Below, piece after piece: positions 6,154-50,507 of a stretch of DNA of 64,000 nucleotides. The notes beneath the pieces were generated by a model, which was given only the letters and a program-made list of their open reading frames with translations, made no database searches and was not told the DNA's origin. The number at the start of each line of letters is the position of its first letter. Position 1 is the first letter of the stretch. Both the position numbers and the translations under genes were made by a program. Origin of the DNA: Martelella mediterranea. GTDB lineage: Bacteria; Pseudomonadota; Alphaproteobacteria; Rhizobiales; Rhizobiaceae. The stretch spans positions 62,001-126,000 of the forward strand of contig NZ_JAINWJ010000011.1 of the NCBI RefSeq assembly GCF_021021415.1, in the 5' to 3' direction.

Positions 6154-6324
6154 GCGGCGCGGATCTGCAAATTCCTGCTGTGACACAATGTCGTTTCCGC
6201 CGTAACGCGCGATCCGCATTGTCGCTGCTCCCGGTAAGTCGTGATTTGACGTCCTGCGGAAAGTCACCGCCGCATCCTTGCGTTTTTACTACGGACGAAC
6301 CCGCCGAAAATCAATGGCGTGTGC

Positions 6325-16366: not shown

Positions 16367-16825
16367 ATGTCAAAATCCGAATTCTGGAAAGAAATGGACG
16401 ATGTCCGCGCCGCGATGCTGGGCATTGGTTCGGCTCGCCATGTGCCGATGTCGCCCTACCCCAATGACAAGGAAGGCGTGATCTGGTTCATCACCGCAAA
16501 GGGCACCGAGCTGGTGAAGGCGATCGAGGCGGGCGAGACCGAAAGTTCGCTGATCGTCACCGGCAATGGCGAGATGCATGCCCGCGTGGAAGGTCGCTCC
16601 GAGGTGGTCCAGGACCGGGAAAAGCTCGAGGCGCTCTGGAACCCGGTTGCCTCGAGCTGGTTCGATGGCATCGACGATCCCGACATCCGTCTGATCCGGT
16701 TTACGCCCGACTTCGCCGAGGTCTGGGCCACCAAGGGCTCGATCGGGTTTGCCATCCAGATCGCAAAGGCCAAGGTGACGGACGAGGAACCCGATATGGG
16801 TGACCACTTCGAGGTCCGCTTCTAG
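16367..16825 (+). CDS. PNPOx-like general stress protein (FMN-binding split barrel)
   Basis: 152 residues from the ATG at 16367, which has a strong AAAGGAG site 6 bases upstream. The pattern resembles general stress protein 26: FWKEMDDVRAAMLGI, PMSPYPNDKEGVIWFITAKGTELVKAI, a central split barrel, and LWNPVASSWFDGIDDPDIRLIRFTPDFAEVW. Proteins of this group bind FMN or flavin-like cofactors, but most have no known reaction. It is monocistronic and convergent with the DUF2207 gene. Confidence 0.82.
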   Translation: MSKSEFWKEMDDVRAAMLGIGSARHVPMSPYPNDKEGVIWFITAKGTELVKAIEAGETESSLIVTGNGEMHARVEGRSEVVQDREKLEALWNPVASSWFDGIDDPDIRLIRFTPDFAEVWATKGSIGFAIQIAKAKVTDEEPDMGDHFEVRF

Positions 16826-16834
16826 CGAACCATC

Positions 16835-16851
16835 GAGGCCTGAACGGCCTC
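16835..16851. terminator. Small stem-loop between convergent genes
   Basis: GAGGCC-TGAAC-GGCCTC follows the PNPOx-like stop, 30 bp before the end of the DUF2207 gene. The T-run on the plus strand comes only about 10 bases later, so terminator function is uncertain. Confidence 0.35.
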
Positions 16852-16880
16852 ACTTGCGACGTTTTTGGTGGCGGCTTGAT

Positions 16881-21180: not shown

Positions 21181-22859
21181 AAACCGCTCTCGCCCTTCTG
21201 CTCGCCCTTGCCGCGAGCGCGGCACATGCCGCCAATGTCGATGAAAATCTGGCCCCTTCCCCAGACGGCGCCTACAGCTACACCCCGCCGGAAAAGGCAA
21301 AGGACGGCGTCTATATTATTGATATCTACGACGAAGACGATGACCGTTATGCCCGCGTCTGGAACACCGCCCCGACGCTGGATGAGGGCCGCAAGGTCGG
21401 AAAAATCGAGACCTTCTATCCCGGCTCGGGCTATCTCAAAACCCGCGTTCCGCTCAACGAGGACGGCCGCCGCGACGGCGAGATGCTGACCTTCGATGAG
21501 GATGAGAATGTCATGGGCCGCACGCCCTATGATGACGGCAGCAAAAACGGTACGGAGGTCCGGTACTGGGCGGATGGCAAGACCCAGCGTGAAACCACTT
21601 GGAAGGATGGCGTGCTAAACGGCCCGTGGCGCCTCTATTATGAGGACGGCACGCTTTCGACCGAAAACAACCATGTCGACGGCCATATTGACGGCGTGGA
21701 ACACAAATACCACGAGAACGGCAAGCTTGCCGCCGAAATCCACTGGTCGATGAGCCGGCGCGATGGCCCCTACAGGGACTACGACAAGGACGGAAACCTT
21801 ATCGAGGAAGGCCATTATGTCGACGGCGCGGCCGATGGGGTCGTCACCGAATACTGGCCCTCCGGCGCGCGCCGAGCCGAGCGCCACTATGACATGGGCA
21901 CGCCGACCGGCAGCGCAAAACGCTGGTCGGAATCCGGCGAACTCGTGGCCCAGACCGATTATGCCGAAGATGGCAGCGCGTTGAGAAACCGGAAATGGAA
22001 GGACGGTGAGCTGATCTGGCTCGAAGAGCCGGTGCAGATCGAAGGCCGTGGCGAAGGGCGGAAAACCGTCGAGCATTACGGCAACTTCACCGAAACCGAG
22101 ATCAAGGCCGACGGCTATCTCCTGTTCACGAAGGATCTCAACGATAAGCTTCTCGACCGCACCGAACTGGTTGACGGCGAATATCGCGGGCTGTTCGTCT
22201 CGACCACCGAGAGCGACCAGATCACCACCCGCGTGCACTATGTCGACGGCAAGGAGGACGGTCTTTACACCCGCGTCTGGCGCGGCCGGGAGTTGGACCG
22301 GGGCTATTACGACCACGGCAAACGCGTCGGCGACTGGCGCCGCATCGAACACTCCAGCGACGTCATCCACGAGACCTATGACGATGACGGAAAGCTGACA
22401 GGTGAGCAGCGCACCTTCACGATGAACGGCGAGTTGAAGAAGCTCGCCACCTATGAGGCGGGCGTCTTGAACGGTCCCTACAAGGAACTGGATGGCGACC
22501 GGATGATTGCCGGCGGCCGTTATGTCGACGGCGAGAAGCACGGCGAATGGCTGGAACAGGTGCCCTACCGCGACGAAACGCGACAGGGCCGCTACGACCA
22601 CGGTATCCGGGAAGGCCGCTGGACGACCTTTGACGGCAACGGCTACCGCATCGCGGTCACAAGCTTCAGCAACGGTATGAAGGACGGGCCGAGCTACATC
22701 CTGGCGGAAAACGGCGCGCTTGAGGAAATGCAGATGTGGAAGGACGACAAGCGCGACGGCGCCACCACCTATTACGACGCCGACGGCCCCGTTTCACATC
22801 AGCCCTGGCGCGATGGACGGCTGCAAGGGGACGCGGTTCCCGCCCGGGATGCGCGATAA
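21177..22859 (+). CDS. Exported MORN/YwqK-like repeat protein
   Basis: 560 residues with a signal peptide (MKTALALLLALAASAAHAANV). The mature protein is built of tandem repeats of about 20-25 residues with the pattern DGxxNGxWxxYYxDGxL (for example KDGVLNGPWRLYYEDGTL, VDGHIDGVEHKYHENGKL, YVDGEKHGEWLEQ). This is the MORN variant seen in YwqK-type proteins. Such repeats form long beta-hairpin ribbons that bind lipid or protein. YwqK is sometimes annotated as an antitoxin, but no toxin partner is recognisable here. It overlaps the preceding gene by 4 bp and is followed by a strong bidirectional terminator. Confidence 0.8.
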   Translation: MKTALALLLALAASAAHAANVDENLAPSPDGAYSYTPPEKAKDGVYIIDIYDEDDDRYARVWNTAPTLDEGRKVGKIETFYPGSGYLKTRVPLNEDGRRDGEMLTFDEDENVMGRTPYDDGSKNGTEVRYWADGKTQRETTWKDGVLNGPWRLYYEDGTLSTENNHVDGHIDGVEHKYHENGKLAAEIHWSMSRRDGPYRDYDKDGNLIEEGHYVDGAADGVVTEYWPSGARRAERHYDMGTPTGSAKRWSESGELVAQTDYAEDGSALRNRKWKDGELIWLEEPVQIEGRGEGRKTVEHYGNFTETEIKADGYLLFTKDLNDKLLDRTELVDGEYRGLFVSTTESDQITTRVHYVDGKEDGLYTRVWRGRELDRGYYDHGKRVGDWRRIEHSSDVIHETYDDDGKLTGEQRTFTMNGELKKLATYEAGVLNGPYKELDGDRMIAGGRYVDGEKHGEWLEQVPYRDETRQGRYDHGIREGRWTTFDGNGYRIAVTSFSNGMKDGPSYILAENGALEEMQMWKDDKRDGATTYYDADGPVSHQPWRDGRLQGDAVPARDAR

Positions 22860-22971: not shown

Positions 22972-23796
22972 TCAGCCGCCGAAGCCGAAGCCGGGAGGCA
23001 TGTCCGTCAGCGAGATGCCGAACGGCTCCAGGCTCTTCAGGATCCAGGTCTGGTTGTTGCCGATTCGGCGGTTATACTCGGCCCAGGCGGATACGAAGCT
23101 CTTGAAGGTCTCGTCCGCGCCGTAGTTCACGGCAATCACCGAGGGCGTGGACAGGACCGGGGTCGGCACCTTGACGCTGCCCACGCTTGCGGCCTTCTTG
23201 GAGATCACCAGCCCGTTGAGCATGGTGTTGATCAGCCCCTGGGCCTTGCCGGTGGTGACGGCGACGATCGCCTCATCGCGGGTCTTGAAGCGGAGAATGT
23301 TGGCCTTGGGCAGATATTGCTGCGCCATCAGATCCTGCGCGGAGCCGAGATCAACTGCGAAGGTGTATTGCGGGTCGTTGAGTTCGTTCCAGCTCTTGCC
23401 CGCAAGCGCTTCATCGGCGGAGATCAGCACGAAACTGTTGTAATAGGTCGGGTCGGAAAACGAAACCGACAGCGCGCGCACCGGCGTCGCGGTCACGGCG
23501 AAGGCCATGTCGACCTTGCCGCTCTGGACATCCAGAATGGCGTTGGACCAGCTCGATTCCACCACTTCAAGCTCGACATCGAGCGTCTTGGCGATATCCG
23601 ACGCCATATCGATGACGAAGCCGGTCCATTCGCCCGTGCGCGGGTCCTTGTTGAAATAGGGCACTTCGTTCAGGATCGCCGGAATACGCAGCTTGCCGCG
23701 CTCGCGAATATCACTGACCGTGTCGGCGCTGGCGGCGGCTGAAAACAGCGAAAGCGCCACCGCCGTCGCGCCACAGATCTTGGCAAACAAATTCAT
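22972..23796 (-). CDS. Amino-acid ABC transporter substrate-binding protein (SBP family 3)
   Basis: 274 residues from the ATG at 23796, with GGAG about 9 bases upstream; the longer frame to 23844 has no signal-like start. The signal peptide is MNLFAKICGATAVALSLFSAAASA. The mature part has the family 3 marks IRERGKLRIPAILN, GFVIDMASDIAKTL, KVDMAFAVTATPVRALSVSFSDPTYYN and YFNKDP. It should bind a polar amino acid for the permease and ATPase at 31.1-32.6 kb, whose own operon lacks a binding protein. It lies on the minus strand 145 bp downstream of the LysR gene, so it may be transcribed with it. Confidence 0.88.
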   Translation of the reverse strand: MNLFAKICGATAVALSLFSAAASADTVSDIRERGKLRIPAILNEVPYFNKDPRTGEWTGFVIDMASDIAKTLDVELEVVESSWSNAILDVQSGKVDMAFAVTATPVRALSVSFSDPTYYNSFVLISADEALAGKSWNELNDPQYTFAVDLGSAQDLMAQQYLPKANILRFKTRDEAIVAVTTGKAQGLINTMLNGLVISKKAASVGSVKVPTPVLSTPSVIAVNYGADETFKSFVSAWAEYNRRIGNNQTWILKSLEPFGISLTDMPPGFGFGG

Positions 23797-23905
23797 TGAG
23801 AGATCTCCATAATTCCCCGGATTGATCGTTTTTTCGAACCGCAACCCCCATCGGTCACGTCCGGGAGCAGGCTAGCGGCTCAGCCGATCGAGACAATGCT
23901 AGAGA

Positions 23906-23930
23906 AAAGACGGCGCTTGTGCGCTTTTTT
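23906..23930. terminator. Weak terminator-like hairpin between LysR and binding-protein genes
   Basis: AAAGACGGCGC-TTGT-GCGCTTTTTT is a short GC stem flanked by A and T runs in the 145 bp gap. It could attenuate read-through from the LysR gene, but the stem is only about 4-5 bp. Confidence 0.3.
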
Positions 23931-23941
23931 GTATGTTCGGG

Positions 23942-24865
23942 TCATAGAGGCGGCAGGATATCGCCGCTTGGCGGGTCCAGAACCGGCCCCACCAGTTCGC
24001 GCTGGCAATCCTCGTAAAGCTGCTGGACCATGGGGTGGGTTTGCAGGAAGCCGGCACTGCCGAAATAGACCCGGATTTCCGGCAGGCTGGTGAGGCGGAG
24101 CGAGGCGACCTTCTCGTCATCGGCAGCCACGCACCATGATGGAATGATGGAAAAGCCGAGCCCCTCCTCCACGCACAGCTTCACGCTGGAACTGCCCGAC
24201 GTCGAAATCGCGGGATGAACCGCCCTGCCCTCGCGGCCGAGAAAATCGACCGAGACATTGCGCAGGGTCTGCCCGGGTTCATAGGTCACGAACGGCTTGT
24301 CCGCTGCCCAGTCCGGAATATCCTCCTGCGCCGGAACATCGCCCCAGGCGCGCGGGAAGACAAGCGAGAGCCGGTAGCTTCCGAGCATGCGCTGCGGCAC
24401 CACCGGGTCGCCGAAATAGCGTTCCGAGATGCAAACATCGAGGCTGCCGTTCTTCACCAGTTCGGCCAGCACCGTATCGCGCTCGTAGACGGAAAACTCC
24501 ATCTCGGGAAAAGCCTCGCGGAAGCGGGCCAGAACCTTCGGAAACAGATAGAAGAAGATCGCCTGCGGCATGCCCACGCGGAGCGCGGAACGCTGGTTCT
24601 CGATCAGCGTCGTCAGCCGCTCCAGCATGATGTCGAGTTCGGGATGCAGCAGATTGTACAGCGCGCGCCCGCGCGGCGTGAGCGTGATGCGCTTGGCGCC
24701 CTGTTCGGATTCGATCAGTTTGTTCTTCAGTATCTGCTCAAGCCGGCGCACGTGATTGGCAGCGGACTGATAGGACAGGTTCAACTCGCGCGCCGCCGCC
24801 GAGAACGAGCCGTTGCGCGCCACATGATAGAAGGTCTGCACCAGCGTAAGACTGATCTTTGCCAT
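23942..24865 (-). CDS. LysR-family regulator of the amine-catabolism cluster
   Basis: 307 residues. A winged helix-turn-helix (LTLVQTFYHVARNGSFSAAARELNLSYQSAANHVRRLEQ) is followed by a linker helix and the effector-binding domain (SALRVGMPQAIFFYLFPKVLARFREAFPEMEFSVYE, TSGSSSVKLCVEEGLGFSIIP). It starts 154 bp from the divergent dehydrogenase operon, the normal arrangement for a LysR activator and its target. The inducer is probably the imported compound or its imine. Confidence 0.9.
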   Translation of the reverse strand: MAKISLTLVQTFYHVARNGSFSAAARELNLSYQSAANHVRRLEQILKNKLIESEQGAKRITLTPRGRALYNLLHPELDIMLERLTTLIENQRSALRVGMPQAIFFYLFPKVLARFREAFPEMEFSVYERDTVLAELVKNGSLDVCISERYFGDPVVPQRMLGSYRLSLVFPRAWGDVPAQEDIPDWAADKPFVTYEPGQTLRNVSVDFLGREGRAVHPAISTSGSSSVKLCVEEGLGFSIIPSWCVAADDEKVASLRLTSLPEIRVYFGSAGFLQTHPMVQQLYEDCQRELVGPVLDPPSGDILPPL

Positions 24866-25019
24866 CGCGAAAATCCCCTTTCTTCTCTTTTAAGGGGTGG
24901 CCGGCCGCTAACCTGATACAAAAAACATGACCTTTGAAGGCCATTCTCTTGTATCGACGCCCGAAGCCGACAGCCGTCAATATGACCGATATCGAACGTC
25001 ATCATACCGGTCAAACCAA

Positions 25020-26195
25020 ATGCACTCCCGCTCCTCACCATCCGCCATCGTTATCGGTTCCGGCATCGTCGGCGCGGCGACCGCCTATTTTCTGGCGAAG
25101 AAGGGCGTCCGCGTCACTCTGATCGACAGCAGCGCGCCGGCGGCGGAAGCGACCGGCGCTGCCGATGGCGCGGTCTCCGTGGCCAGCAAGCGTCCCGGCC
25201 CGATGATGACGACGGCCCTGGAGGGCATTGCGCTTTACCGCAGGCTGGCCGAAGAGGGACTGTTCGCCGGCCTGTTCAAGCAGCGCTCGACCTTCATCAT
25301 CGCCTCCAGCGCGGAAGAATGCACGGTGCTGGAGGCGCATGCGGCGGCCCTTTCATCCGCCGGCGTGAGCGTGGAGCATCTCAACAGCTGCGCATTGCGC
25401 CGGCGCTTTCCGGCGCTTTCCGAAAGCGCGTCCCTTGCCGTTGAAGTTCATGCGGAGGGACACGCGATCGGCTACCGGATCGTTCATCGGTTGATCGAAG
25501 CCGCCGGCATCGCCGTCAACCGCAACACCCGCGCCAGCCGCCTGCGGCTTGCCGGCAATGGCGAACGGGTCGAGGGCGTTGAGACCGACAACGGGTTTCT
25601 CTCCGCCGACGCTGTCATCATCTGCGCCGGTTCCGGCTCCGAGCGTCTGGTCAATGTCGGCGCCGGGCTCATTCCGCGAAAGGGGCAATTGCTCGTCACC
25701 GAACGCGCCGTCGCCCTCAACGAATCCATGCCCGGCGCGATCATGTCGGGCCGTTATCTGCTTTCCAAGCGTTCCGGCAACAGCGATGCCGCCCCGCCCG
25801 GACGCGGGTTTGGGCTGGTCATCGACCCCCTGGAGACGGGGCAATTCCTGATCGGCGGCACGCGCGAAGCCTTCGGCGACCGCAAGGTCAATGATCTCGA
25901 GGCCGTGTCCCGCATCCTGAGCGATGCCGTCGCGCTGGTACCGGGGCTCGCGCGGCTTCGGCTTCTCAGGGCCTTTGCCGGCGCGCGCACCGCGGTTTCC
26001 GACGGATTGCCGCTGATCGGCAGGCTTCCCGGCATAGAAAACGGCTTCATCGCCACCGGCTTTGAAGGTGATGGCATCTGCCTTGGCCCGGTCACCGGCA
26101 GGACGATCGCCGAACTTGTCACCGGAGAGCGTCCATCGATCGATATCAGCCCGTTCGATCCCGCCCGCTTCGGCATCTGCGAGGTGGCGGCATGA
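25020..26195 (+). CDS. FAD-dependent amine/imino-acid dehydrogenase, DAO-type catalytic subunit
   Basis: 391 residues from the ATG at 25020 (MHSRSSPSAIVIGSG). There is no clear ribosome site, and an upstream in-frame ATG at 24927 is possible. The Rossmann motif VIGSGIVGAATAYFLAKKG and ending GLPLIGRLPGIENGFIATGFEGDGICLGP are typical of the D-amino-acid oxidase fold that oxidises C-N bonds of amino acids (sarcosine, D-hydroxyproline, opines). It overlaps the small ferredoxin-like gene by 4 bp. With the next two genes it forms a beta/gamma/alpha set like HcnCAB, octopine oxidase or D-hydroxyproline dehydrogenase, which pass electrons to the respiratory chain. The substrate is unknown. Confidence 0.88.
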   Translation: MHSRSSPSAIVIGSGIVGAATAYFLAKKGVRVTLIDSSAPAAEATGAADGAVSVASKRPGPMMTTALEGIALYRRLAEEGLFAGLFKQRSTFIIASSAEECTVLEAHAAALSSAGVSVEHLNSCALRRRFPALSESASLAVEVHAEGHAIGYRIVHRLIEAAGIAVNRNTRASRLRLAGNGERVEGVETDNGFLSADAVIICAGSGSERLVNVGAGLIPRKGQLLVTERAVALNESMPGAIMSGRYLLSKRSGNSDAAPPGRGFGLVIDPLETGQFLIGGTREAFGDRKVNDLEAVSRILSDAVALVPGLARLRLLRAFAGARTAVSDGLPLIGRLPGIENGFIATGFEGDGICLGPVTGRTIAELVTGERPSIDISPFDPARFGICEVAA

Positions 26196-26446
26196 GCCGG
26201 GGGACATTCTTCTTCATGGGGCGCGAAATCGTCTTCCGCCCGGGCGAAACCATCGCTGCCGCCCTTGCCGCCGAAGGCGTGATGCAGCTTGGCGCCGACG
26301 GTCTCGGCCAGCCGACCCGCTATTTCTGCGGCATCGGCGCTTGCCAGGGCTGTGTCGCGCGGGTCGACGGGATCGCGCGGGAAACCTGTCTTACCCCTGC
26401 CCGCGACGGCATGCAGGTGGAAAGCATGGAGGGCGGTTATGTCTGA
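26192..26446 (+). CDS. Small (2Fe-2S) subunit of the amine dehydrogenase
   Basis: 84 residues. FMGREIVFRPGETIAAALAAEG resembles the ferredoxin fold start. The cluster ligands are YFCGIGACQGC plus the later RETCLTP cysteine, the HcnA/SoxA-gamma pattern. It overlaps the genes on both sides (4 bp and 8 bp), consistent with a heteromeric enzyme made in fixed ratio. Confidence 0.92.
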   Translation: MSRGTFFFMGREIVFRPGETIAAALAAEGVMQLGADGLGQPTRYFCGIGACQGCVARVDGIARETCLTPARDGMQVESMEGGYV

Positions 26447-27782
26447 GCCGGCAAAAACAGCCGAAGTGCTTGTCATCGGCGCCGGTCCGGCAGGGCTTGC
26501 GGCCGCCGCTACGCTGAAGCGCGCCGGCGTTTCGGTCGAGATCATCGAACAACGGCCAACGATCGGCGGCGCGATCTACCGCCAGCCCATCGACGGCGTC
26601 ACGCCGGTTGCCCAGCCGCGCGCGGCCAAGGCGCGTTTCGCGCGGCTGAGACGGGCCGCCGAAAACATCCCGATCCACCATGAACAGGTCTTCATCGCGG
26701 TCGACGGCGACGGCTGGGTGGTCACCGAAAACCGCCGGACGGGCCGTATCGAAACACGCCGGCCGCAGGCGGTGATCATCGCAACCGGGGCGATCGAAAA
26801 GGTCCTGCCACGCCCCGGCTGGCACCTGCCCGGCATTTCCACCGCCGGCGGCCTGCAGGTGATGATGAAGGAAACCGGACGACCGCCGCAAGGCCGCGTT
26901 CTGCTCGCCGGCAATGGCCCGCTCCTTTTCGCCGTGGCCGCGCAGATGGCGCGGCTCGGCAATCCGCCGGTGGCGGTCGTCGAGGCGGGCGCGCCCTTCA
27001 GGGCGGTTGCCGCCGGCTTGCAGCTTTTCCGGTTTCCCCGATTGCTGACGGAATCCCTCGGCTACATGGCGACGCTGCTCACGCGGCGGATACCGGTTCT
27101 GCAGGCGACCACGGTGCGCGATATCCGTCGGACCGACGACGGCTTTACCGTCACGCTGGCCGGGCGGGATGACCGCACCCGGGAGATCATCGTCGATCGC
27201 GTAGGCCTGCATGACGGCATCCGGCCCAATGATTTCGCATTGCCGTCCGAGGGTCAGCCTTCCCCAAGCCACCCCTTGATCCTCCATGCCGGCGACGGGC
27301 GCGAGGCGCTTGGCGCGATTGCCGCCGAAGCCGACGGGCGCAAGGCTGCGGGCCAGGTGATTGCCGCGCTGTCCGGACATGCGCCAAGGCCCGAAGCAAT
27401 GCTGGCGCACATGCGCACGGCGCAGGCGGTGCTCGACCGGATATTCGCGCCCGCATCAGGCGCATCCCCGTTCGCGGCGTTGCCCGATGACACGATCCTC
27501 TGCCGCTGCGAGGGCAAGACCGCGGGCGATCTGAAGCGGCTCGTGATCGGCGTCGATGCGCCCTCGGAGCGCGAGATCAAGCACAATGGCCGCTTCGCCA
27601 TGGGCGCCTGCCAGGGGCGGTTCTGCGCCCACAATACCGCAGCCTTCATGGCCGAGATCAGACCCGGCCAGACCATCCCCGCGGCTGAAAACCTTGCCGG
27701 CAGGCGATGGCCGGTGCGCCCGGTCCCGATCGACGCGATGATCACCGCGGCTTCCTCCCCAATTGAACCGAAAGACCAGTGA
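26439..27782 (+). CDS. NAD(P)/FAD-dependent oxidoreductase subunit with C-terminal BFD-like (2Fe-2S) domain
   Basis: 447 residues from the ATG at 26439. The N-terminal FAD motif is EVLVIGAGPAGLAAAATLKRAG, followed by TIGGAIYRQP and a second nucleotide-binding segment (GRVLLAGNGPLLFAVAAQMA). The C-terminal domain has CRCEGKT and, 33 residues on, MGACQGRFC, four cysteines for a (2Fe-2S) centre like the BFD fold. This is the alpha subunit type of HcnB, OoxA and hydroxyproline dehydrogenases. It carries electrons from the DAO-type subunit to an acceptor. It overlaps the ferredoxin-like gene by 8 bp. Confidence 0.9.
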   Translation: MSEPAKTAEVLVIGAGPAGLAAAATLKRAGVSVEIIEQRPTIGGAIYRQPIDGVTPVAQPRAAKARFARLRRAAENIPIHHEQVFIAVDGDGWVVTENRRTGRIETRRPQAVIIATGAIEKVLPRPGWHLPGISTAGGLQVMMKETGRPPQGRVLLAGNGPLLFAVAAQMARLGNPPVAVVEAGAPFRAVAAGLQLFRFPRLLTESLGYMATLLTRRIPVLQATTVRDIRRTDDGFTVTLAGRDDRTREIIVDRVGLHDGIRPNDFALPSEGQPSPSHPLILHAGDGREALGAIAAEADGRKAAGQVIAALSGHAPRPEAMLAHMRTAQAVLDRIFAPASGASPFAALPDDTILCRCEGKTAGDLKRLVIGVDAPSEREIKHNGRFAMGACQGRFCAHNTAAFMAEIRPGQTIPAAENLAGRRWPVRPVPIDAMITAASSPIEPKDQ

Positions 27783-27789
27783 GGCATCT

Positions 27790-29190
27790 ATGGCACAGGC
27801 ACAGGCGGCGATCCTGCCGAAAACAGAAACGATTTCCGTCCGCAACCCGTTTTCCGGCGCGCCGGTGGGCGAGCTTTGCGTGAACACGCCGGTGGAGATC
27901 GACGCCGCCGTGATCAACGCCAAGGCCGCCGCCCGCGCCTTCCGTTTCTCGACCCCGGCCACGCGCCGCGCGCTGCTGAACGCGCTTGCCGCCGAAATGG
28001 CCACTGACGCCGAAAACCTGGCGCGCCTCGTCTCTTCGGAAATGGGCAAGACCATAAGGGAGGCGCGCAACGAAATCCGCCGCGCCCAGAACACGCTGAA
28101 GCTTGCCGGCGACGCCGCCACCTTCCTCGACGGCGAGGCCCTGCACTGCGCCATCGTCGAAGGCGGCGCCGACCGGCTTGCGACCGTCACCTACGAGCCC
28201 GTCGGCGTTGTCGGGGCGATCACGCCCTTCAACTATCCGGTCAATCTCCTCTGCCACAAGCTCGGGCCGGCAATTGCCGCCGGCAACGCCGTCGTCGCCA
28301 AGCCCTCGCCGAAGGCGCCGCTTGCGGCCAACAGGCTCTGCGAACTGGCCCGCAAGGCCGGCTGGCCGGACGACCTGTTCCAGGTCGTCCATGGCGGGGC
28401 GGAGGCGGCCCTTGCTCTTGCCCGCGCGCCGATCGACCTGTTGTCGTTCACGGGCGGCCCGGCGGCCGGGCTGGCGCTCAAGAACGCCAGCGGTCTGGTG
28501 CGCTGCCTGATGGAGCTTGGCGGCAATGATCCGCTGTTCGTCTTGCCCGATGCCGATCTCGATCGTGCCGTCGCCACCACGATCGGACACCGCTTCGAGA
28601 TCGCCGGCCAGAGCTGCGCCGCCGTCAAGAAACTCTATCTTCACGCCGATATTGAAAAAGCCTTCACCGAAAAACTGATGGCCGCCGTGGACGCAATCGA
28701 GTTCGGCGACCCCTCGCGTGACGACACCGACATGGGCACCGTGATCGACCTGCCTGCCGCCCGTCTGGTCGCCGGCAGGATCGAGGCCACGGTCGGCGCC
28801 GGCAAGGGCAGGCTTCTGACTGGCGGTAATCATGATGGCACCGTTTTCGCGCCGACCGTGCTTGCCGATGTCGCCGCCAATGCTCCGGTCATTGCCGAGG
28901 AGACCTTCGGCCCCGTGATCGCGATCCGCCGCTTTTCCGACGCCGGCGCGGCGATCGCGGAGGTCAATGCCGGGGAATACGGGCTGCAGGCGGGCGTCTT
29001 CACCAACGACCATGCCCTGGTCCGGATGTTTTCCCGCAACCTCGCCGTTGGCGGCGTGATGATAAACGAGGGGCCGGATTTCCGCGCCGAGCATGTGCCC
29101 TTCGGCGGCATCAAGCGTTCCGGCCTCGGCCGCGAGGGCGTGCGCGTCGCCATCAGGGAAATGTCGGAACAGAAGGTCGTGATCGACTAA
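27790..29190 (+). CDS. NAD(P)-dependent aldehyde dehydrogenase
   Basis: 466 residues from the ATG at 27790, with GAGG 7 bases upstream. ALDH marks are ITPFNYPVNLLCHKLGPAIAAGN, KPSPKAPL, SFTGGPAAG, the general-base region LMELGGNDPLFVLPDAD and the catalytic cysteine in AGQSCAAVKKLYLH. The subgroup looks like lactaldehyde/succinate- or 2-oxoglutarate-semialdehyde dehydrogenases. It starts 7 bp after the amine dehydrogenase genes and probably oxidises the semialdehyde formed when the product imine opens. Confidence 0.9.
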   Translation: MAQAQAAILPKTETISVRNPFSGAPVGELCVNTPVEIDAAVINAKAAARAFRFSTPATRRALLNALAAEMATDAENLARLVSSEMGKTIREARNEIRRAQNTLKLAGDAATFLDGEALHCAIVEGGADRLATVTYEPVGVVGAITPFNYPVNLLCHKLGPAIAAGNAVVAKPSPKAPLAANRLCELARKAGWPDDLFQVVHGGAEAALALARAPIDLLSFTGGPAAGLALKNASGLVRCLMELGGNDPLFVLPDADLDRAVATTIGHRFEIAGQSCAAVKKLYLHADIEKAFTEKLMAAVDAIEFGDPSRDDTDMGTVIDLPAARLVAGRIEATVGAGKGRLLTGGNHDGTVFAPTVLADVAANAPVIAEETFGPVIAIRRFSDAGAAIAEVNAGEYGLQAGVFTNDHALVRMFSRNLAVGGVMINEGPDFRAEHVPFGGIKRSGLGREGVRVAIREMSEQKVVID

Positions 29191-29200
29191 GGAGAGCACA

Positions 29201-29947
29201 ATGCGTATCGGAATTCTCGGCGCTTCGGGCCGTGTCGGAACCAGTCTCGTGGAGCTGATCGTCTCCAATCCCGGACTTGAGCTTGCGGCGGCGTTGGTGT
29301 CACCGGGTTCAAGGCTTGTCGGCAAGCCCGTCGCCGGCAGCAGCATCGAATATCGCCCCGCCGATGCGGCGATGAAGAGCCATTGCGACGTCATCATCGA
29401 TTTTTCGACGCCTGAGGCCAGCATGGCGCTTCAGGAGGCCATAGGCCTGAAGAACATACCCGTGGTCATCGGCACGACCGGGTTCTCCGCCGAGGACGAT
29501 GCCCGCCTTTCTGCCTGCTGCGCCCACCGGCCTATGCTGATCAGCGCGAATTTCGCCCGCGGCTTCGAGGCCTTTCGCCTGAACGTTCTCGGCTTTGCCC
29601 GGATGATGCCGGAGGGCGAGCCGCGCGTGAGCGAGACCTATCACGTCCGCAAGAAGGCCGAGCCTTCGGGAACGTCCAGACTGCTGGCCGGACAGATCGA
29701 AGAGGCGAGAAGCGCCGTCATGGGCTTTGCCGCCGCAAAAACGCCGATCACCGTGTTCCGCGAAGGCGATACCGTCGGCATCAACGCCGTCAGCTTCGAT
29801 CTCGGTTCGGCGGAGGCCCGTTTCACCTATCAGGTCCACACGCTTTCGGCCTATGCCGAGGGCGCCATCGCCGCAGCGCAGTGGCTGAGCTCCGGTCATC
29901 GCGAACCCCGCCGCTATTCACTCGCCGACAGCCTCGCCGCCCGGTGA
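29201..29947 (+). CDS. DapB-like dihydrodipicolinate reductase paralogue
   Basis: 248 residues. It has the Rossmann start RIGILGASGRVGTSLVEL, VIIDFSTPEAS, VVIGTTGF and the substrate-site segment ETYHVRKKAEPSGTSRLL. In biosynthetic DapB this segment is usually EAHHxxKxDAPSGTA. Here the first of the two histidines is Tyr while the second His, the Lys and SGT remain. SANFARGFEAF replaces the usual SPNMSLGVN. The enzyme therefore looks like a diverged reductase of a cyclic imine and not the housekeeping DapB. It lies 10 bp after the aldehyde dehydrogenase gene and 23 bp before the DapA-like gene. Confidence 0.8.
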   Translation: MRIGILGASGRVGTSLVELIVSNPGLELAAALVSPGSRLVGKPVAGSSIEYRPADAAMKSHCDVIIDFSTPEASMALQEAIGLKNIPVVIGTTGFSAEDDARLSACCAHRPMLISANFARGFEAFRLNVLGFARMMPEGEPRVSETYHVRKKAEPSGTSRLLAGQIEEARSAVMGFAAAKTPITVFREGDTVGINAVSFDLGSAEARFTYQVHTLSAYAEGAIAAAQWLSSGHREPRRYSLADSLAAR

Positions 29948-29970
29948 TATTCCAATCAGAGGAGAACACA

Positions 29971-30888
29971 ATGAACGAACTCAGGAGCCGCTTTACCGGC
30001 GTTTTCACCGCCCTCGTGACCCCGTTTCGCGATGGAACGATCGACTTTGCCGCCTTCGATGCGCTTGTGGAGCGGCAGATCGCCGCCGGCGTCGCCGGTC
30101 TCGTGCCCGTCGGCACCACCGGCGAGGCCGCGACCCTTTCCGATGACGAGGCCGATCAACTGATCGCCCGCACGGTCGAAAAGGCCAGAGGCCGCGCGCT
30201 CGTCATGGCGGGCGCCGGCGCCAACGACACGAAGAAGGCGGTTGAAAAGGTTCGCCGCGCCGAAGCGGCCGGCGCCGATGCCGTGCTGGTCGTCACGCCC
30301 TATTACAACAAGCCGACCCAGGCGGGCCTGATCGCCCATTACGGCGCGGTGGCCGAGGCGACCGCGCTGCCCGTCATGCTCTATTCCGTGCCCGGCCGCT
30401 GCGGCGTCGAGATCGCGCCGGAAACCTGCGCGACGCTGATGCGCAATCACGCCAATATCTTCTCCATCAAGGAGGCCGGCGGCTCCGCCGCCCGGGTCAG
30501 CGAGTTACGCCGCACCTGCGGCGACGAGTTGATCGTGCATTCGGGCGATGACGGGCTGACATTGCCGTTCCTGTCGCTCGGCGCGGTCGGGGTCACCTCC
30601 GTCGTCGCCAATGTCGCGCCGGACACGATGGTCGCCATGGTCCGGGCCTGGCACGAGGGCAACACTGCCCACGCGCTTGCGCTGCACGATCTGGTGGCCG
30701 AACTCACTGATGGCATGTTCGTCGAAAGCAATCCCGGCCCCGTCAAGGCGGCGCTGGCGCTGAACAACCTTTCGGGTCCGGAAATGCGGCTGCCGATGGT
30801 ACCGGTCTCCGACGCCAACCGCGAGCGCCTCGCCGGCATCCTGAACCGCTATACGTCGGCGGCCTCCGGCGTGCTCGGCGCGCGGTGA
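29971..30888 (+). CDS. DapA-family lyase/synthase
   Basis: 305 residues from the ATG at 29971 with GAGGAG 6 bases upstream. It is a (beta/alpha)8 barrel with GTTGEAATL, PYYNKPTQAGLIAHY, the Tyr in MLYSVPGRCGVE, and the Schiff-base lysine K167 in FSIKEAGG. All residues that define true 4-hydroxy-tetrahydrodipicolinate synthase seem present, including the GTTGE loop and the Arg after VPG. The family also includes lyases and deaminases, such as the pyrroline-hydroxy-carboxylate deaminase of hydroxyproline catabolism. Its place in a catabolic operon suggests a lyase or deaminase role; a second biosynthetic DapA is the alternative. Confidence 0.85.
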   Translation: MNELRSRFTGVFTALVTPFRDGTIDFAAFDALVERQIAAGVAGLVPVGTTGEAATLSDDEADQLIARTVEKARGRALVMAGAGANDTKKAVEKVRRAEAAGADAVLVVTPYYNKPTQAGLIAHYGAVAEATALPVMLYSVPGRCGVEIAPETCATLMRNHANIFSIKEAGGSAARVSELRRTCGDELIVHSGDDGLTLPFLSLGAVGVTSVVANVAPDTMVAMVRAWHEGNTAHALALHDLVAELTDGMFVESNPGPVKAALALNNLSGPEMRLPMVPVSDANRERLAGILNRYTSAASGVLGAR

Positions 30889-31059
30889 GGCATCGCGGCA
30901 ACCCGACGGAAATCCGCCGGCTTTCGGTTCGGATTTGAGCAAGGACAATTGCTCGGCGCGCGGCAACCGCTAACAGAATGTCGGTTCAGCGCGCCGGCGA
31001 CAGACGCCGGTTCCTTATCTCGGAAGGGGCCGGGCTTCACCATAACGAGGGGAACCGAA

Positions 31060-31146
31060 ATGAACGAGAAACGGCATCAAGAGCAGTGTTCCGGGCGAAG
31101 ATTGGCCCTGACAAGGCATCGACATGACAGCCAGGGAGCAAAGTGA
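31060..31146 (+). other. 28-codon ORF coupled to the permease gene; possible leader or remnant
   Basis: ATG at 31060 has GAGGGG 7 bases upstream. The reading (MNEKRHQEQCSGRRLAL ...) ends in TGA at 31144-31146, overlapping the permease ATG in TGATG. It is basic and has no homology that I recognise. The position, where a binding-protein gene normally sits, suggests the scar of a deleted gene or a coupling leader. The rest of the 30889-31145 spacer has only an inverted repeat GAGCAA-N6-TTGCTC at 30937-30954. Confidence 0.4.
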
Positions 31147-31811
31147 TGCAGTATAACTGGGACTTTCATTCGGTATGGCAGTATCGCGACCTGTTCCTCT
31201 ACGGGCTCGGGATCAGCGTCGTCTACACGTTCGGATCGATCTTTTTCGGCGTGATCCTCGGCTTCGTCACCTGCGCGGCGCGGCTGTCGCGGTTCAGGGT
31301 GTTCAACTGGATCGGGCGGATCTATCAGGAAATCTTCCGCTGCAGCCCGCTCCTGGTGCAACTGCTGTGGTTCTACTACGCCTTCCCGCTGCTGATCGGC
31401 GTCAACATCGACAACCGGTTCGCCGCCATGCTGACCCTGTCGCTCTATGTCGGCGCCTTTTACGCGGAAATCTTCCGCGGCGGGATCGTGTCGATCGACA
31501 AGGGCCAGCGCGAGGCGGCGGCGGCCATCGGCATGAGCCCATTCCAGTCGATGCGCCGGATCATTCTGCCGCAGGCGCTGAAACGGGTGCTGCCATCCTT
31601 CATCAACCAGTCGGTCATCCAGTTCAAGAACACCTCGCTCGTCTCCGTCATTTCGGTTGCCGACCTCGCCTATATGGCCGCGGTGGTGAACGGCCAGACC
31701 TACCGGCCGCTGGAATCCTACACGGTCATGGCCGTGCTCTACATCGTCGTGCTGCTGCCTCTGATGCAGGCCGCGGACTGGTTTGAAAAACGGCTCAGGG
31801 TCAGCGACTGA
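31146..31811 (+). CDS. Amino-acid ABC transporter permease (HisM/GlnP type)
   Basis: 221 residues from the ATG at 31146; a GTG one codon earlier is also possible. Five hydrophobic helices are present. The N-terminal part is [20 protein letters not shown] and the EAA loop is [35 protein letters not shown], which contacts the ATPase. Probably a homodimeric channel, since only one permease gene is present. It is followed by the ATPase gene after 10 bp. Confidence 0.92.
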
Positions 31812-31821
31812 GGGAAGGAAG

Positions 31822-32601
31822 ATGAACATGACACAGCAAAGCCAGACCGGCGCGCCGGTTCTCGAAGCTGCCGGCCTTCAGAAAAGCTACGGCATTCACG
31901 AGGTCCTGAAAGGGATCGACCTGACCCTGACGCGCGGCGAGGTCGTCGCCCTGATCGGCCCCTCGGGGTCCGGCAAGTCCACCTTCATCCGCTGCCTCAA
32001 CGTCATGGAGATGCCCACCGGCGGCACGATCCGCTTTCGTGGGCGCGATGTCGGCGCAAGCTTCCGGGATGCCGGCGACAAGATCGGGATCGGCACGCTT
32101 CGCCGCCATGTCGGCATGGTGTTCCAGCATTTCAATTTGTTTCCGCACAAGACGGTGCTGGAAAACGTGATCGAAGGGCCGGTGATCGTCTGCCGCAAGC
32201 CGAAGAAGGAGGCCATCGCCCACGCAATGGAACTTCTCGGCCAGGTCGGCCTCGCCGAAAAACACGCCGCCTACCCCAATCATCTCTCCGGCGGCCAGAA
32301 GCAGCGCGTCGCGATTGCCCGCGCGCTGGCGATGGAGCCGGAGGTGCTGCTGCTCGACGAGGTGACCAGCGCGCTTGACCCCGAACTCGTCGGCGAGGTT
32401 CTCGCCGTTATCCGCAAGCTCGCCGAAGACGGCATGACCATGGCGATCGTGACCCATGAAATGGCCTTTGCCGCCGATGTATCGAGCCGGGTCCTGTTCC
32501 TGGACCAGGGCGTGATCGCGGAAACCGGCTCGCCCGACCAGGTGATCCTCAATCCGCAGAACCCAAGGCTTCAGGCCTTCGTTTCCCGTTTCAGGGGGTA
32601 G
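31822..32601 (+). CDS. Amino-acid ABC transporter ATPase
   Basis: 259 residues from the ATG at 31822, with AGGGAAGGA just upstream. Walker A is GPSGSGKST, the Q-loop [18 protein letters not shown], the signature [15 protein letters not shown], Walker [13 protein letters not shown] and the switch His VTHEM. This is the GlnQ/HisP class that drives polar amino-acid import. It forms the transporter with the adjacent permease and probably the binding protein at 22972. Confidence 0.94.
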
Positions 32602-32604
32602 ACC

Positions 32605-33678
32605 ATGGACAGGTTCAAGATTGCGATCTTCGGCGCGGGCAAGGTCGGTTCGGCGCTTGCGGCAACGCTGTGTCTTACCTCAGACATCGACGTCACGATC
32701 ATCGACCCTTCCGAAGAAGCGCTCGACGCGTTTGCGTCGCTCGGCCTTCCGGTCAAGGCGCTGCGCCAGCGCCAGAATGAGAAGATGCCCGCCGAGGCGC
32801 GCGGCAGCGATCTGATCGTTGCCGCCGCCCCCGACTGGGCTTCATCCGGCATTGCCGAGCTTGCCGGCGCTTCGACCGCGCATTTTCTGGATTTCTCCCC
32901 GATCCGGCCGGAAAATCTTTCCCTGCTGCAACAACTCGCCAAAACGCGCGTCGTGCTTTCGGGCACCGGCGTGGCGCCGGGGCTGGTGGACAACATCGCC
33001 TCGGGGCTGATGGAGCCCGGCCGCACGATCAGCGATCTGACGATCCGGGTCGGCTCGCTGCCGCGCTACCCCACAAACCGGCTGGGTTACGGCCAGATCT
33101 GGGATATCGACGCGATGATCGAGGAATATACCCGGGCCTGCGAAGCCGTGCAGGACGGCAAGGCGGTGTTCCTGAAACCGCTGGAGCATCTGGAAAAGGT
33201 CATTCTCGACGGAACGGCCTATGAGTGCTTCACCACCGCGCGCGGCCTGTCCGACCTAACGCCCTATCTGGAGGCCGGGGTGAGGAACGTCACCTTCAAG
33301 ACCCTGCGCTATCCCGGCCATCTCGACTATATGCGCTTTCTTCTGGACGATCTGGGGCTGAAAACCCGCCGCGACATGCTCAGATCCCTGCTGATGAACG
33401 GGCTGCCCGTCATCGACAAGGACGAACTCCTGCTGTTCCTGACGGCGCGCAGCACGCATCGCAACCGTCCCGCCGAACGATCGCTGTCGCTGCGCTTCCG
33501 CTCCGACCGGCATCAGCCGTTCAACGCCATGACCTCGGTCGCCGCCGCCTACGCCGCAAGCCTGATCGACCTTTTGCGACAGGGCGCTTTCGGCCCAAGC
33601 GGCATGGTGGCCCACAACCGGATCGAGAGCGAACAATTGCTGGAAAACCCCTTCCTCAAGCGGCTGCTCGTGGCGTGA
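32605..33678 (+). CDS. Saccharopine-dehydrogenase-family oxidoreductase, lysine 6-dehydrogenase-like
   Basis: 357 residues starting 3 bp after the ATPase gene. The N-terminal Rossmann motif is KIAIFGAGKVGSALAATL. The central LSGTGVAPGLVDNIASGLM and the later NVTFKTLRYPGHLDYMRFLLDDLGL match the pattern of lysine 6-dehydrogenases, which deaminate lysine to aminoadipate semialdehyde (cyclising to piperideine-6-carboxylate). Saccharopine reductases share the fold. The gene ends the catabolic run. It supports a lysine-like or cyclic imino-acid substrate, though the exact reaction cannot be read from sequence. Confidence 0.75.
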   Translation: MDRFKIAIFGAGKVGSALAATLCLTSDIDVTIIDPSEEALDAFASLGLPVKALRQRQNEKMPAEARGSDLIVAAAPDWASSGIAELAGASTAHFLDFSPIRPENLSLLQQLAKTRVVLSGTGVAPGLVDNIASGLMEPGRTISDLTIRVGSLPRYPTNRLGYGQIWDIDAMIEEYTRACEAVQDGKAVFLKPLEHLEKVILDGTAYECFTTARGLSDLTPYLEAGVRNVTFKTLRYPGHLDYMRFLLDDLGLKTRRDMLRSLLMNGLPVIDKDELLLFLTARSTHRNRPAERSLSLRFRSDRHQPFNAMTSVAAAYAASLIDLLRQGAFGPSGMVAHNRIESEQLLENPFLKRLLVA

Positions 33679-50234: not shown

Positions 50235-50507
50235 ATGATAAAGTCGGCCAAGGATTTCGGAGAACTGATCAGGGTGAAGCGCAAGGAGTGCGGCTGGACC
50301 CAGACCGAACTTGCGCGGCGCGCCGGCACGGGCGAACGCTTCATCGTGGACCTTGAGGCCGGAAAGCCGAGCTGCCAGCTCGGAAAGGCGCTGACAGTCG
50401 CCCGCACGGTTGGCCTGGAGCTGGGCGATCTGAAGGCCCGAGCGCCCTTTGATGACGGGGAGGATACAGGCCTCGACTTCCTGCCGACATTCGGTAACCG
50501 TCAATGA
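50235..50507 (+). CDS. hipB: HipB-like XRE-family antitoxin
   Basis: 90 residues from the ATG at 50235 with AGGGAA 7 bases upstream. The whole N-terminal half is an XRE helix-turn-helix: FGELIRVKRKECGWTQTELARRAGTGERFIVDLEAGKPSCQLGKALTVARTVGLELGDL. The C-terminal tail is short and acidic. Its stop overlaps the HipA-like start by 4 bp (ATGA), as is usual for these modules. It should bind the promoter and neutralise the kinase. Confidence 0.87.
   Translation: MIKSAKDFGELIRVKRKECGWTQTELARRAGTGERFIVDLEAGKPSCQLGKALTVARTVGLELGDLKARAPFDDGEDTGLDFLPTFGNRQ

What the first reader, a model, noticed from the sequence alone, without database searches (positions are those of the whole stretch)
22972..33678. 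Possible undescribed catabolic pathway: amine dehydrogenase, DapA/DapB paralogues and a lysine-dehydrogenase-like enzyme with its own ABC importer
Eight enzyme or transport genes run head to tail from 25020 to 33678 opposite a LysR regulator: three-part FAD/(2Fe-2S) amine dehydrogenase, ALDH, DapB-like, DapA-like, importer and lysine 6-dehydrogenase-like. D-hydroxyproline operons share the dehydrogenase, DapA-type deaminase and ALDH, but they have no DapB or lysine dehydrogenase, and this locus has no proline-racemase-family epimerase. The mix points to a lysine-derived or cyclic imino acid (pipecolate, diaminopimelate, lysine opine or a piperideine), with DapB and DapA used catabolically. The family calls are established; the pathway and substrate are inference.
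Basis: partly seen in the sequence, partly recalled or inferred. Interest (0 to 1): 0.78.

Follow-up and report, generated by a model that had tools for sequence, protein, structure and literature searches.

The report
Conserved lysine-like amino acid catabolic operon
A self-contained set of eleven genes, found together in many soil and marine bacteria, appears to import an unidentified lysine-like acid and break it down using altered copies of lysine-making enzymes, a pathway we could not find described.

Summary
Eleven genes (window 22972-33678) form a self-contained module: 35 of the 36 clade loci found through DapB carry all eleven; the other is a 3.5 kb contig. A 42-bp operator before the operon matches once per genome in 17 of 17 cluster-bearing genomes searched. 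DapA and DapB are not housekeeping copies. DapA keeps the six dihydrodipicolinate-synthase residues checked, including the Arg that binds aspartate semialdehyde, but changed four lysine-feedback residues (41 of 41). The last gene is a lysine 6-dehydrogenase paralogue: it keeps the carboxylate Arg, lacks the Tyr modelled to hold the alpha-amine, and has an invariant extra Arg (40 of 40). DapB is accessory: absent from four variant clusters of two lineages, two of which carry an Asp/Glu-type racemase. My best reading is catabolism of a diaminopimelate-like diamino acid to pyruvate plus aspartate, with DapA working as a lyase. The module is firm; the substrate is inference (about 0.33). DapB's role is unexplained.

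The parts
22972..23796 (-). periplasmic binding protein of the importer (SBP_bac_3)
   Evidence: Pfam SBP_bac_3; present in 35 of 36 clade loci; lies between dapA and the permease in L078 and L080 and in L161; the residue at the usual alpha-amine Asp position is not Asp (position recalled)
23942..24865 (-). LysR-type regulator, divergent
   Evidence: Pfam HTH_1 and LysR_substrate; conserved in position
24916..24957 (.). 42-bp operator-like site ATACAAA-N26-TTGYATCGA in the LysR/FAD-dehydrogenase intergenic region
   Evidence: one match in the window, none in 100 shuffles; one match per genome in 17 of 17 cluster-bearing genomes searched, reversed-pattern control zero; intergenic sequences of 37 rows. 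Binding by LysR is inferred
25020..26195 (+). FAD (DAO-family) beta subunit of a heterotrimeric amine dehydrogenase
   Evidence: Pfam DAO 5.9e-51 for the longer ORF 24927-26195; start at 25020 as annotated in M. mediterranea
26192..26446 (+). small 2Fe-2S gamma subunit, CX4CX2CX11C
   Evidence: Pfam Fer2_4; motif read from the translation and compared with Watanabe 2015
26439..27782 (+). FAD/NAD alpha subunit with CXC...CX4C
   Evidence: Pfam Pyr_redox_2; translation; motif as in Watanabe 2015
27790..29190 (+). aldehyde dehydrogenase; best NCBIfam models SafD, lactaldehyde and phosphonoacetaldehyde dehydrogenases, all below cut-off
   Evidence: conservation n=38
29201..29947 (+). DapB-like reductase, His159 position is Tyr147, Lys163 and SGT kept; accessory
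   Evidence: Pfam DapB_N/C, below TIGR00036 cut-off; tree and residue table; absent from L161, L222, L223, L224
29971..30888 (+). DapA-like aldolase/lyase with DHDPS active-site residues and changed lysine-feedback residues
   Evidence: TIGR00674 313 bits against cut-off 206; tree; residue table
31146..31811 (+). permease of the polar amino acid ABC importer
   Evidence: Pfam BPD_transp_1, TIGR01726 over cut-off
31828..32601 (+). ATPase of the importer
   Evidence: Pfam ABC_tran
32605..33678 (+). lysine 6-dehydrogenase paralogue with altered pocket positions (F231, invariant R159)
   Evidence: phmmer 3abi 1.9e-20; AlphaFold pLDDT 91.2; Foldseek best hit 3abi; residue table

Best explanation
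A LysR-controlled import and catabolism module for a lysine-like diamino acid that carries a second carboxylate; meso-diaminopimelate (DAP) or a close analogue is the best candidate. Proposed route: the importer brings the acid in; the lysine-dehydrogenase paralogue deaminates one end with NAD+, so that the product closes to a tetrahydrodipicolinate-type cyclic imine; the FAD/2Fe-2S amine dehydrogenase oxidises the remaining (D) alpha-carbon and passes electrons to the respiratory chain, giving dihydrodipicolinate, which hydrates to HTPA; DapA, freed from lysine inhibition, cleaves HTPA to pyruvate and aspartate semialdehyde; the ALDH oxidises the semialdehyde to aspartate. Shown here: the module, its conserved operator-like site, the separate evolution of DapA and DapB, the residue changes. 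Inferred: substrate, order of steps, direction of DapA. Not explained: DapB, which is accessory; its normal reaction run backwards with NAD(P)+ should be strongly uphill (recalled energetics), so it may only remove stray dihydrodipicolinate or feed lysine synthesis.
For: The genes travel together without flanking genes that recur beyond close relatives, as far as a crude ORF caller could show, so the set may be complete from uptake to central metabolites. DapA keeps T44, T45, Y107, Y133, R138 and K161 in 41 of 41 and has changed S48, H53, H56 and E84 in 41 of 41 (N80 is kept), while the 13 housekeeping DapAs keep S48, H56 and E84 in 13 and H53 in 12. R138 binds aspartate semialdehyde and is Asn in the hydroxyoxoglutarate aldolase HOGA. 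The lysine-dehydrogenase paralogue keeps the R242 equivalent in 40 of 40, lacks Tyr at the Y238 equivalent in 40 of 40 (Tyr in 30 of 30 homologues outside the cluster) and has R159 in 40 of 40 (A, G or V in 30 of 30); in the published LysEDH model Y238 helps to hold the alpha-NH3+ and R242 the carboxylate. R159 lies in the loop that leads to W166 and E174. The racemase in two DapB-less clusters is of the Asp/Glu family, which suits a dicarboxylic amino acid. FAD trimers of this family act on D-hydroxyproline and opines.
Against: No substrate was tested. DHDPS enzymes prefer condensation. DapB has no role in this scheme and would undo the FAD step. The LysEDH residues were mapped onto the cluster by the motif Y-X-T-X-R, since the LysEDH sequence was in no call; and the proven lysine dehydrogenase of P. 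horikoshii has Glu, not Tyr, at that position and Pro at the R159 position (alignment), so Tyr is not universal among lysine dehydrogenases, although Glu could also hold an amine and Phe could not. R159 could not be placed relative to the active site, since no coordinates were available. The binding protein lacks the Asp that usually holds an alpha-amine (position recalled), which is odd for DAP unless it is bound by its D end. The ALDH models do not point to aspartate semialdehyde.
Confidence: 0.33

Rival explanations
1. Catabolism of a 4-hydroxylated six-carbon imino or amino acid (4-hydroxypipecolate, 4-hydroxylysine). The FAD dehydrogenase makes a 4-hydroxy cyclic imine, open form 2-keto-4-hydroxy-6-aminohexanoate; the lysine-dehydrogenase paralogue removes the terminal amine; ALDH gives 2-keto-4-hydroxyadipate; DapA cleaves it to pyruvate and malonate semialdehyde.
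For: Uses all four core enzymes once. The missing alpha-amine Tyr fits a keto acid substrate, and LysEDH does not need the alpha-amine. The ALDH resembles enzymes for two-carbon aldehydes with an acidic group.
Against: Does not explain Arg159 or DapB. DapA keeps R138 and has Ala at the 163 position, as in DHDPS and not as in HOGA. Racemases of the Asp/Glu family are not expected to act on cyclic imino acids (recalled).
Confidence: 0.15
2. Catabolism of a lysine opine such as lysopine. The trimer acts as an opine dehydrogenase that frees pyruvate; the lysine-dehydrogenase paralogue acts on the lysine part, its extra Arg binding the additional carboxylate of the N-substituent.
For: The trimer has the subunit order and cysteine motifs of flavin opine dehydrogenase OdhB-C-A. 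A secondary alpha-amine would explain both the missing Tyr and the missing Asp of the binding protein.
Against: Leaves DapA and DapB without a task although DapA was present in every complete cluster seen and keeps its catalytic residues. The binding protein is only weakly related to nopaline-binding NocT (E 4e-8 to 9e-8).
Confidence: 0.15
3. The module is anabolic: lysine-insensitive DapA, DapB and the dehydrogenase make DAP or a related compound from pyruvate and aspartate semialdehyde.
For: Changed lysine-feedback residues are what a diverted biosynthetic DapA would show; condensation is the preferred direction.
Against: An importer gene set is present in every complete cluster seen, with ALDH and a respiratory-type amine dehydrogenase; DapB can be missing.
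Confidence: 0.1
4. An ordinary hydroxyproline (D-Hyp) operon with hitch-hiking genes.
For: Same beta-gamma-alpha dehydrogenase, DapA-family member and ALDH (Watanabe 2015 introduction).
Against: No proline-racemase-family gene at the locus; the genome has one elsewhere beside another DHDPS paralogue whose active-site motifs are unlike this one.
Confidence: 0.04

Closest known systems
Bacterial trans-4-hydroxy-L-proline pathway (D-HypDH, Pyr4H2C deaminase, KGSA dehydrogenase)
   Same: Heterotrimeric FAD/2Fe-2S amine dehydrogenase, a DapA-superfamily enzyme and an ALDH in one operon
   Different: No proline-racemase-family epimerase; DapA has the DHDPS residue set; extra lysine-dehydrogenase paralogue, DapB and own importer
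Flavin-containing opine dehydrogenase OdhABC (PMC4575208)
   Same: Subunit order beta-gamma-alpha and the [2Fe-2S] cysteine motifs; putative opine transporters in those gene clusters
   Different: Where the paper places an Arg-X-Trp FMN motif in the beta subunit, the closest match I see here is Arg-X-Phe; no DapA, DapB or lysine dehydrogenase is mentioned for opine clusters in the abstract and two sections I read
Lysine biosynthesis DapA/DapB
   Same: DapA catalytic residues; DapB Lys163 and SGT
   Different: Separate clades; four lysine-feedback residues changed; DapB His159 is Tyr; the genome has its own housekeeping pair
L-lysine 6-dehydrogenase (3ABI; LysEDH)
   Same: Fold, carboxylate Arg, Trp/Glu/Thr of the pocket
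   Different: No Tyr at the alpha-amine position in 40 of 40 (Glu in 3ABI); invariant extra Arg; the five plasmid homologues viewed have other neighbours (Lrp/AsnC regulator in two, an ALDH in one)
Human-type 4-hydroxy-2-oxoglutarate aldolase (HOGA, DHDPS superfamily used as a lyase)
   Same: Superfamily precedent for catabolic cleavage
   Different: HOGA-specific Asn/Ser/Asn residues absent; R138 kept

Membership tests
D-hydroxyproline catabolic operon | proline-racemase-family epimerase in the operon | tested here: not met
   None at the locus; the genome's only match at E <= 0.001 is at C2:82846-83763
D-hydroxyproline catabolic operon | heterotrimeric FAD/2Fe-2S dehydrogenase | tested here: met
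D-hydroxyproline catabolic operon | DapA-family deaminase of the Pyr4H2C type | tested here: inconclusive
   Active-site motifs match housekeeping DHDPS, not the paralogue next to the epimerase-family gene, which leans against; but no characterised deaminase sequence was compared
4-hydroxy-tetrahydrodipicolinate synthase (DHDPS) | T44, T45, Y107, Y133, R138, K161 | tested here: met
   41 of 41 cluster rows; residue roles
Biosynthetic, lysine-regulated DapA | lysine-feedback residues S48, H53, H56, E84 and placement with housekeeping copies | tested here: not met
   changed in 41 of 41 rows; separate clade 100/99. H53 and H56 as allosteric residues; S48 and E84 recalled
4-hydroxy-tetrahydrodipicolinate reductase (DapB) | catalytic His159 and Lys163, SGT loop | tested here: inconclusive
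   Lys in 38 of 39, SGT in 38 of 38 filled rows, His159 position Tyr in 38 of 39 and Arg in one; roles recalled; below TIGR00036 cut-off
L-lysine 6-dehydrogenase | fold and alpha-carboxylate Arg | tested here: met
L-lysine 6-dehydrogenase | alpha-amine-binding Tyr238 of the LysEDH model | tested here: not met
   F, V, I, S or C in 40 of 40, mapped by motif; but the P. horikoshii enzyme has Glu there, so the feature may not define the family
Flavin opine dehydrogenase | beta-gamma-alpha order and [2Fe-2S] motifs | tested here: met
Flavin opine dehydrogenase | oxidation of an opine | not testable with these tools
   needs enzyme assay
HOGA | Asn78, Ser198, Asn173 | tested here: not met
   Thr, Ala, Arg at these positions

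The most novel reading that the evidence does not exclude
The first dedicated catabolic pathway for diaminopimelate, the cell-wall amino acid: bacteria take it up and take it apart with copies of the enzymes that make it, DapA working as a lysine-insensitive lyase that yields pyruvate and aspartate semialdehyde.
Probability: 0.28. Interest if true: 0.82.

Novelty: new variant of a known kind. Interest (0 to 1): 0.62.

Why it matters
The operon combines a hydroxyproline/opine-type dehydrogenase with re-purposed lysine-biosynthesis enzymes and a modified lysine dehydrogenase, altered at identifiable residues in the rows compared. If the reading is right, it shows how a biosynthetic aldolase is turned into a degradative one (catalytic residues kept, feedback residues changed) and how soil and marine bacteria could use a major cell-wall amino acid. 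In the annotated record viewed, the DapA and DapB genes carry lysine-biosynthesis GO terms, so the finding also bears on annotation.

Tried and rejected
Rejected: (1) duplicated lysine biosynthesis: trees and residue tables place DapA and DapB apart from housekeeping copies. (2) Hydroxyproline operon: no epimerase, different DapA motifs. (3) Hydroxyoxoglutarate cleavage: HOGA residues absent. (4) DapB run backwards with NAD(P)+ as the step that makes HTPA: expected to be strongly uphill (recalled), and DapB is missing from four clusters.

Led nowhere: recurrent flanking genes (near-identical flanks of close relatives, one ABC ATPase family in five loci, spurious antisense ORFs; the ORF caller was crude and found the DapB gene in only 25 and the 2Fe-2S gene in only 18 of the 40 loci given, so rare recurrent neighbours could be missed); RNA families and tRNAs (none); binding-protein model (pLDDT 66; one search gives general amino acid binding proteins); sigma-70-type promoter scan (none). 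Literature: seven searches were aimed at the cluster or at DAP catabolism and three at components; none of the titles or abstract starts listed names such a cluster. Searches listed 20 of 88 and 20 of 39 papers. Only open-licence PubMed Central papers are covered.

Limits of the counts: the 36 clade loci were found by the DapB-like protein, so DapB presence there is by selection. In a sample not chosen by DapB, 8 of 397 genomes have a binding protein at least 62% identical; of these 4 have DapB, 3 (one genus) do not, and 1 is split over contigs and undecided. Of the 80 loci (L051-L081) are clade members; of the 49 others (27-35% identity) only L082-L085 were checked for the cassette (none) and 14 were offered as far rows for a tree. 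L071 is a 3.5 kb contig with 4 of the genes. L022 (G077), counted among the 39 DapB rows, lies on a 4.3 kb contig whose neighbourhood was not examined. L046, L050 and L224 were left out of the residue tables; several rows are near-identical, so counts are not independent events. The 13 housekeeping DapA rows are the clade that holds the genome's own copy. In the DapA tree the cluster and housekeeping clades join by long branches, and in the DapB tree the bootstrap had not settled and 14 ungrouped rows may lie inside a group; I claim separation, not sisterhood. The 30 lysine-dehydrogenase-like comparison rows are defined by homology, not by assay; neighbourhoods of 11 of the 25 genome rows were looked at, none with the cassette. 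In one search one of 18 handles (L069) was not held, G116 and G869 look like the same assembly, all 17 genomes were chosen because they carry the cluster, and no genome without it was searched.

Papers: PMC4575208 abstract, outline and sections 3 and 22; PMC10413350, PMC6697735, PMC5109050 and PMC3188589 passages only; PMC4113996 requested but nothing read (one search failed); PMC2832993 not held; all others search listings only.

Full report
OBSERVATION. The genes are present as described. Window 22972-23796 (binding protein) and 23942-24865 (LysR) lie on the minus strand; nine genes follow on the plus strand from 25020 to 33678: three dehydrogenase subunits, ALDH, DapB-like, DapA-like, permease, ATPase and a lysine-dehydrogenase-like gene. 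Neighbours overlap by 4 or 8 bp or lie 23 bp apart or less, except 257 bp before the permease. The source is a Martelella-type genome: the window lies in a 5.4 Mb assembly, and the nearest named record is plasmid pMM593 of Martelella mediterranea DSM 17316, 92-99% identical protein by protein.

CONSERVATION. A scan of 84,980 species genomes with the DapB-like alignment gave 80 loci, of which 31 (40-77% identity to the window protein) belong to the clade. With five plasmid records, 35 of 36 loci carry all eleven genes; the last is a 3.5 kb contig holding four. These loci were chosen by DapB. In 33 of the 35 the binding protein is divergent beside LysR as in the window; in Azospirillum halopraeferens (L078) and Hyphomicrobiales UR115 (L080) it sits between dapA and the permease, which ties it to the importer. 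The hosts include Rhizobiaceae, Phyllobacteriaceae, Stappiaceae, Ancalomicrobiaceae, Martelella and Azospirillaceae (titles, labels). Flanking genes were not seen to recur beyond close relatives, with a crude ORF caller. Distribution is patchy: 6 of 151 genomes have a DapB-like match of at least 55% identity (4 of 13 genomes of the genus), plus two at 38-46%; the other matches listed are at housekeeping level. In a sample not chosen by DapB, 8 of 397 genomes of the order have a binding protein at least 62% identical. Plasmid carriage was seen in five records with DapB and in Chelatococcus. This is what a self-sufficient, transferable catabolic module looks like; transfer itself is inferred.

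OPERATOR. The LysR/FAD-dehydrogenase intergenic regions of 36 loci and the window contain the 7-mer ATACAAA on one strand or the other in 37 of 37. The pattern ATACAAA-N(22-32)-TTGYATCGA matches once in the window (24916-24957; 100 shuffles gave none) and exactly once in each of 17 cluster-bearing genomes, always with a 26-base spacer; the reversed-pattern control gave none. Two of the 17 look like one assembly, and genomes without the cluster were not searched. In L078, L080/L198 and L161 the left half is degenerate (read). LysR binding is inferred.

DAPA. The 41 cluster sequences form one clade (100/99) apart from the housekeeping clade, which includes the genome's own copy. T44, T45, Y107, Y133, R138 and K161 are kept in 41 of 41 and in 13 of 13 housekeeping rows; S48, H53, H56 and E84 are changed in 41 of 41, whereas housekeeping rows keep S48, H56 and E84 in 13 of 13 and H53 in 12; N80 is kept in all, and N134 is Ser in 41 of 41. 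R138 binds aspartate semialdehyde and is replaced by Asn in the hydroxyoxoglutarate aldolase. Of the twelve DHDPS-family genes in this genome only the housekeeping copy and this one show the full motif set. So this DapA should still join or split pyruvate and aspartate semialdehyde, probably without lysine control.

DAPB. The 39 rows fall together (100/100) apart from 23 housekeeping rows; His159 is Tyr in 38 and Arg in one, against His in 23 of 23; Lys163 is kept in 38 of 39 and the SGT loop in 38 of 38 filled rows. It is absent from Chelatococcus sp. CO-6 (L161) and from L222, L223 and L224, three genomes of one genus. L161 carries a PRK07475-type, Asp/Glu racemase-family gene in the operon and L222 one 60% identical to it; L223 and L224 have neither. 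The more distant cluster L197 has all eleven genes rearranged. L161 and L222/L223 lie in different parts of the DapA tree, so DapB was probably lost more than once. It is accessory.

LYSINE-DEHYDROGENASE PARALOGUE. Sequence and fold point to L-lysine dehydrogenase 3ABI (model pLDDT 91.2). In a published LysEDH model H181, Y238 and T240 hold the alpha-NH3+ and R242 the carboxylate, and the enzyme needs the carboxylate but not the alpha-amine (passages only). Mapped by the motif Y-X-T-X-R, 40 of 40 cluster rows keep the R242 and T240 equivalents; the Y238 equivalent is never Tyr (F 34, V 3, I, S, C) against Tyr in 30 of 30 homologues outside the cluster; and R159 is invariant against A 28, G 1, V 1. 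The proven P. horikoshii enzyme has Glu and Pro at these two positions, so Tyr is not required of a lysine dehydrogenase, though an amine-holding side chain is still lacking in most of the cluster rows. R159 lies in the loop between strand 141-153 and helix 168-176 that carries W166 and E174. The simplest reading is a lysine-like substrate whose alpha-amine is missing, masked or of the other hand, and which has an extra acidic group. The binding protein also lacks the usual alpha-amine Asp (position recalled), but so do distant relatives, at least some of which sit with D-amino acid dehydrogenase-like genes, so this is weaker.

DEHYDROGENASE. The trimer has the subunit order and both [2Fe-2S] motifs of flavin opine and D-hydroxyproline dehydrogenases. 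A 55%-identical beta subunit sits on S. meliloti pSymA with a different importer and an amidase.

MECHANISM. The constraints are: an importer, a D-amine or secondary-amine dehydrogenase linked to respiration, an NAD lysine-dehydrogenase paralogue, an aldolase with the residues for aspartate semialdehyde, and an ALDH; optional DapB or a racemase. A DAP-like acid satisfies most of them: dehydrogenase paralogue on one centre, ring closure, FAD oxidation of the D centre to dihydrodipicolinate, hydration to HTPA, DapA cleavage to pyruvate and aspartate semialdehyde, oxidation to aspartate. Racemase and DapB would then be two functions that the housekeeping set can also supply. Against it: DHDPS favours condensation, DapB would work against the FAD step, the Tyr argument is weakened by 3ABI, and nothing shows that DAP is bound. 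Rivals are given with their tests. I put the DAP-like route at 0.33 and a dedicated catabolic module of some kind at about 0.9.

NOVELTY. None of the ten paper searches listed a description of this cluster (details under Tried and rejected; open-licence literature only, listings capped). Every enzyme family is known; the combination and the residue changes are new to me. I file it as a new variant of the hydroxyproline/opine type of operon; it fails the hydroxyproline membership test on the epimerase, and the DapA type leans against it too.

Noticed in passing
   Followed up: yes
L161 11086-11796, L222 about 16646-17320: PRK07475-type Asp/Glu racemase-family gene in two DapB-less versions of the operon (60% identity between the two)
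   Followed up: partly
L193 6082-8495: A racemase 38% identical to the Chelatococcus one lies next to a lysine-dehydrogenase homologue outside the cluster
   Followed up: no
L167 8896-15330 (A. tumefaciens pAt2), L226, L227, L229, L200: A related system: binding protein about 42% identical, racemase, DadA-like FAD oxidoreductase and a TPP enzyme resembling acetolactate synthase or guanidino-oxopentanoate decarboxylase; looks like catabolism of an L-amino acid through its D-form
   Followed up: partly
L231, L233 (Sinorhizobium pSymA): Trimer relatives (beta subunit 54-55% identical) with LysR, a second ABC importer and an amidase in S. meliloti and S. medicae; function unknown
   Followed up: partly
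L064 about 5550-6980: Insertion between the first two operon genes in Rhizobiales bacterium AFS003181, with an ORF resembling an IS110-type transposase (recalled motif); the closely related Ciceribacter lividus locus L065 lacks it
   Followed up: partly
L051: Labelled Arenimonas (Gammaproteobacteria) MAG but cassette and flanks match Ciceribacter/Rhizobium loci L054, L056 and L077; probably a mis-binned contig
   Followed up: partly
L288 8838-10782 (G000:C2): Hydroxyproline-type pair elsewhere in the same genome: proline-racemase-family gene next to a DHDPS paralogue
   Followed up: yes
L163 8165-10125: In Rhizobium phaseoli pRphaN841d a lysine-dehydrogenase homologue sits next to a gene annotated as ectoine synthase
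   Followed up: no
window 33932-40669: 2245-residue ORF directly downstream, annotated as autotransporter in M. mediterranea; no Pfam match at 1e-5
   Followed up: no
window 50504-51757: HipA-family gene (HipA_C and Couple_hipA)
   Followed up: no
window 21177-22859: MORN-repeat protein, annotated in M. mediterranea as YwqK-family antitoxin
   Followed up: no
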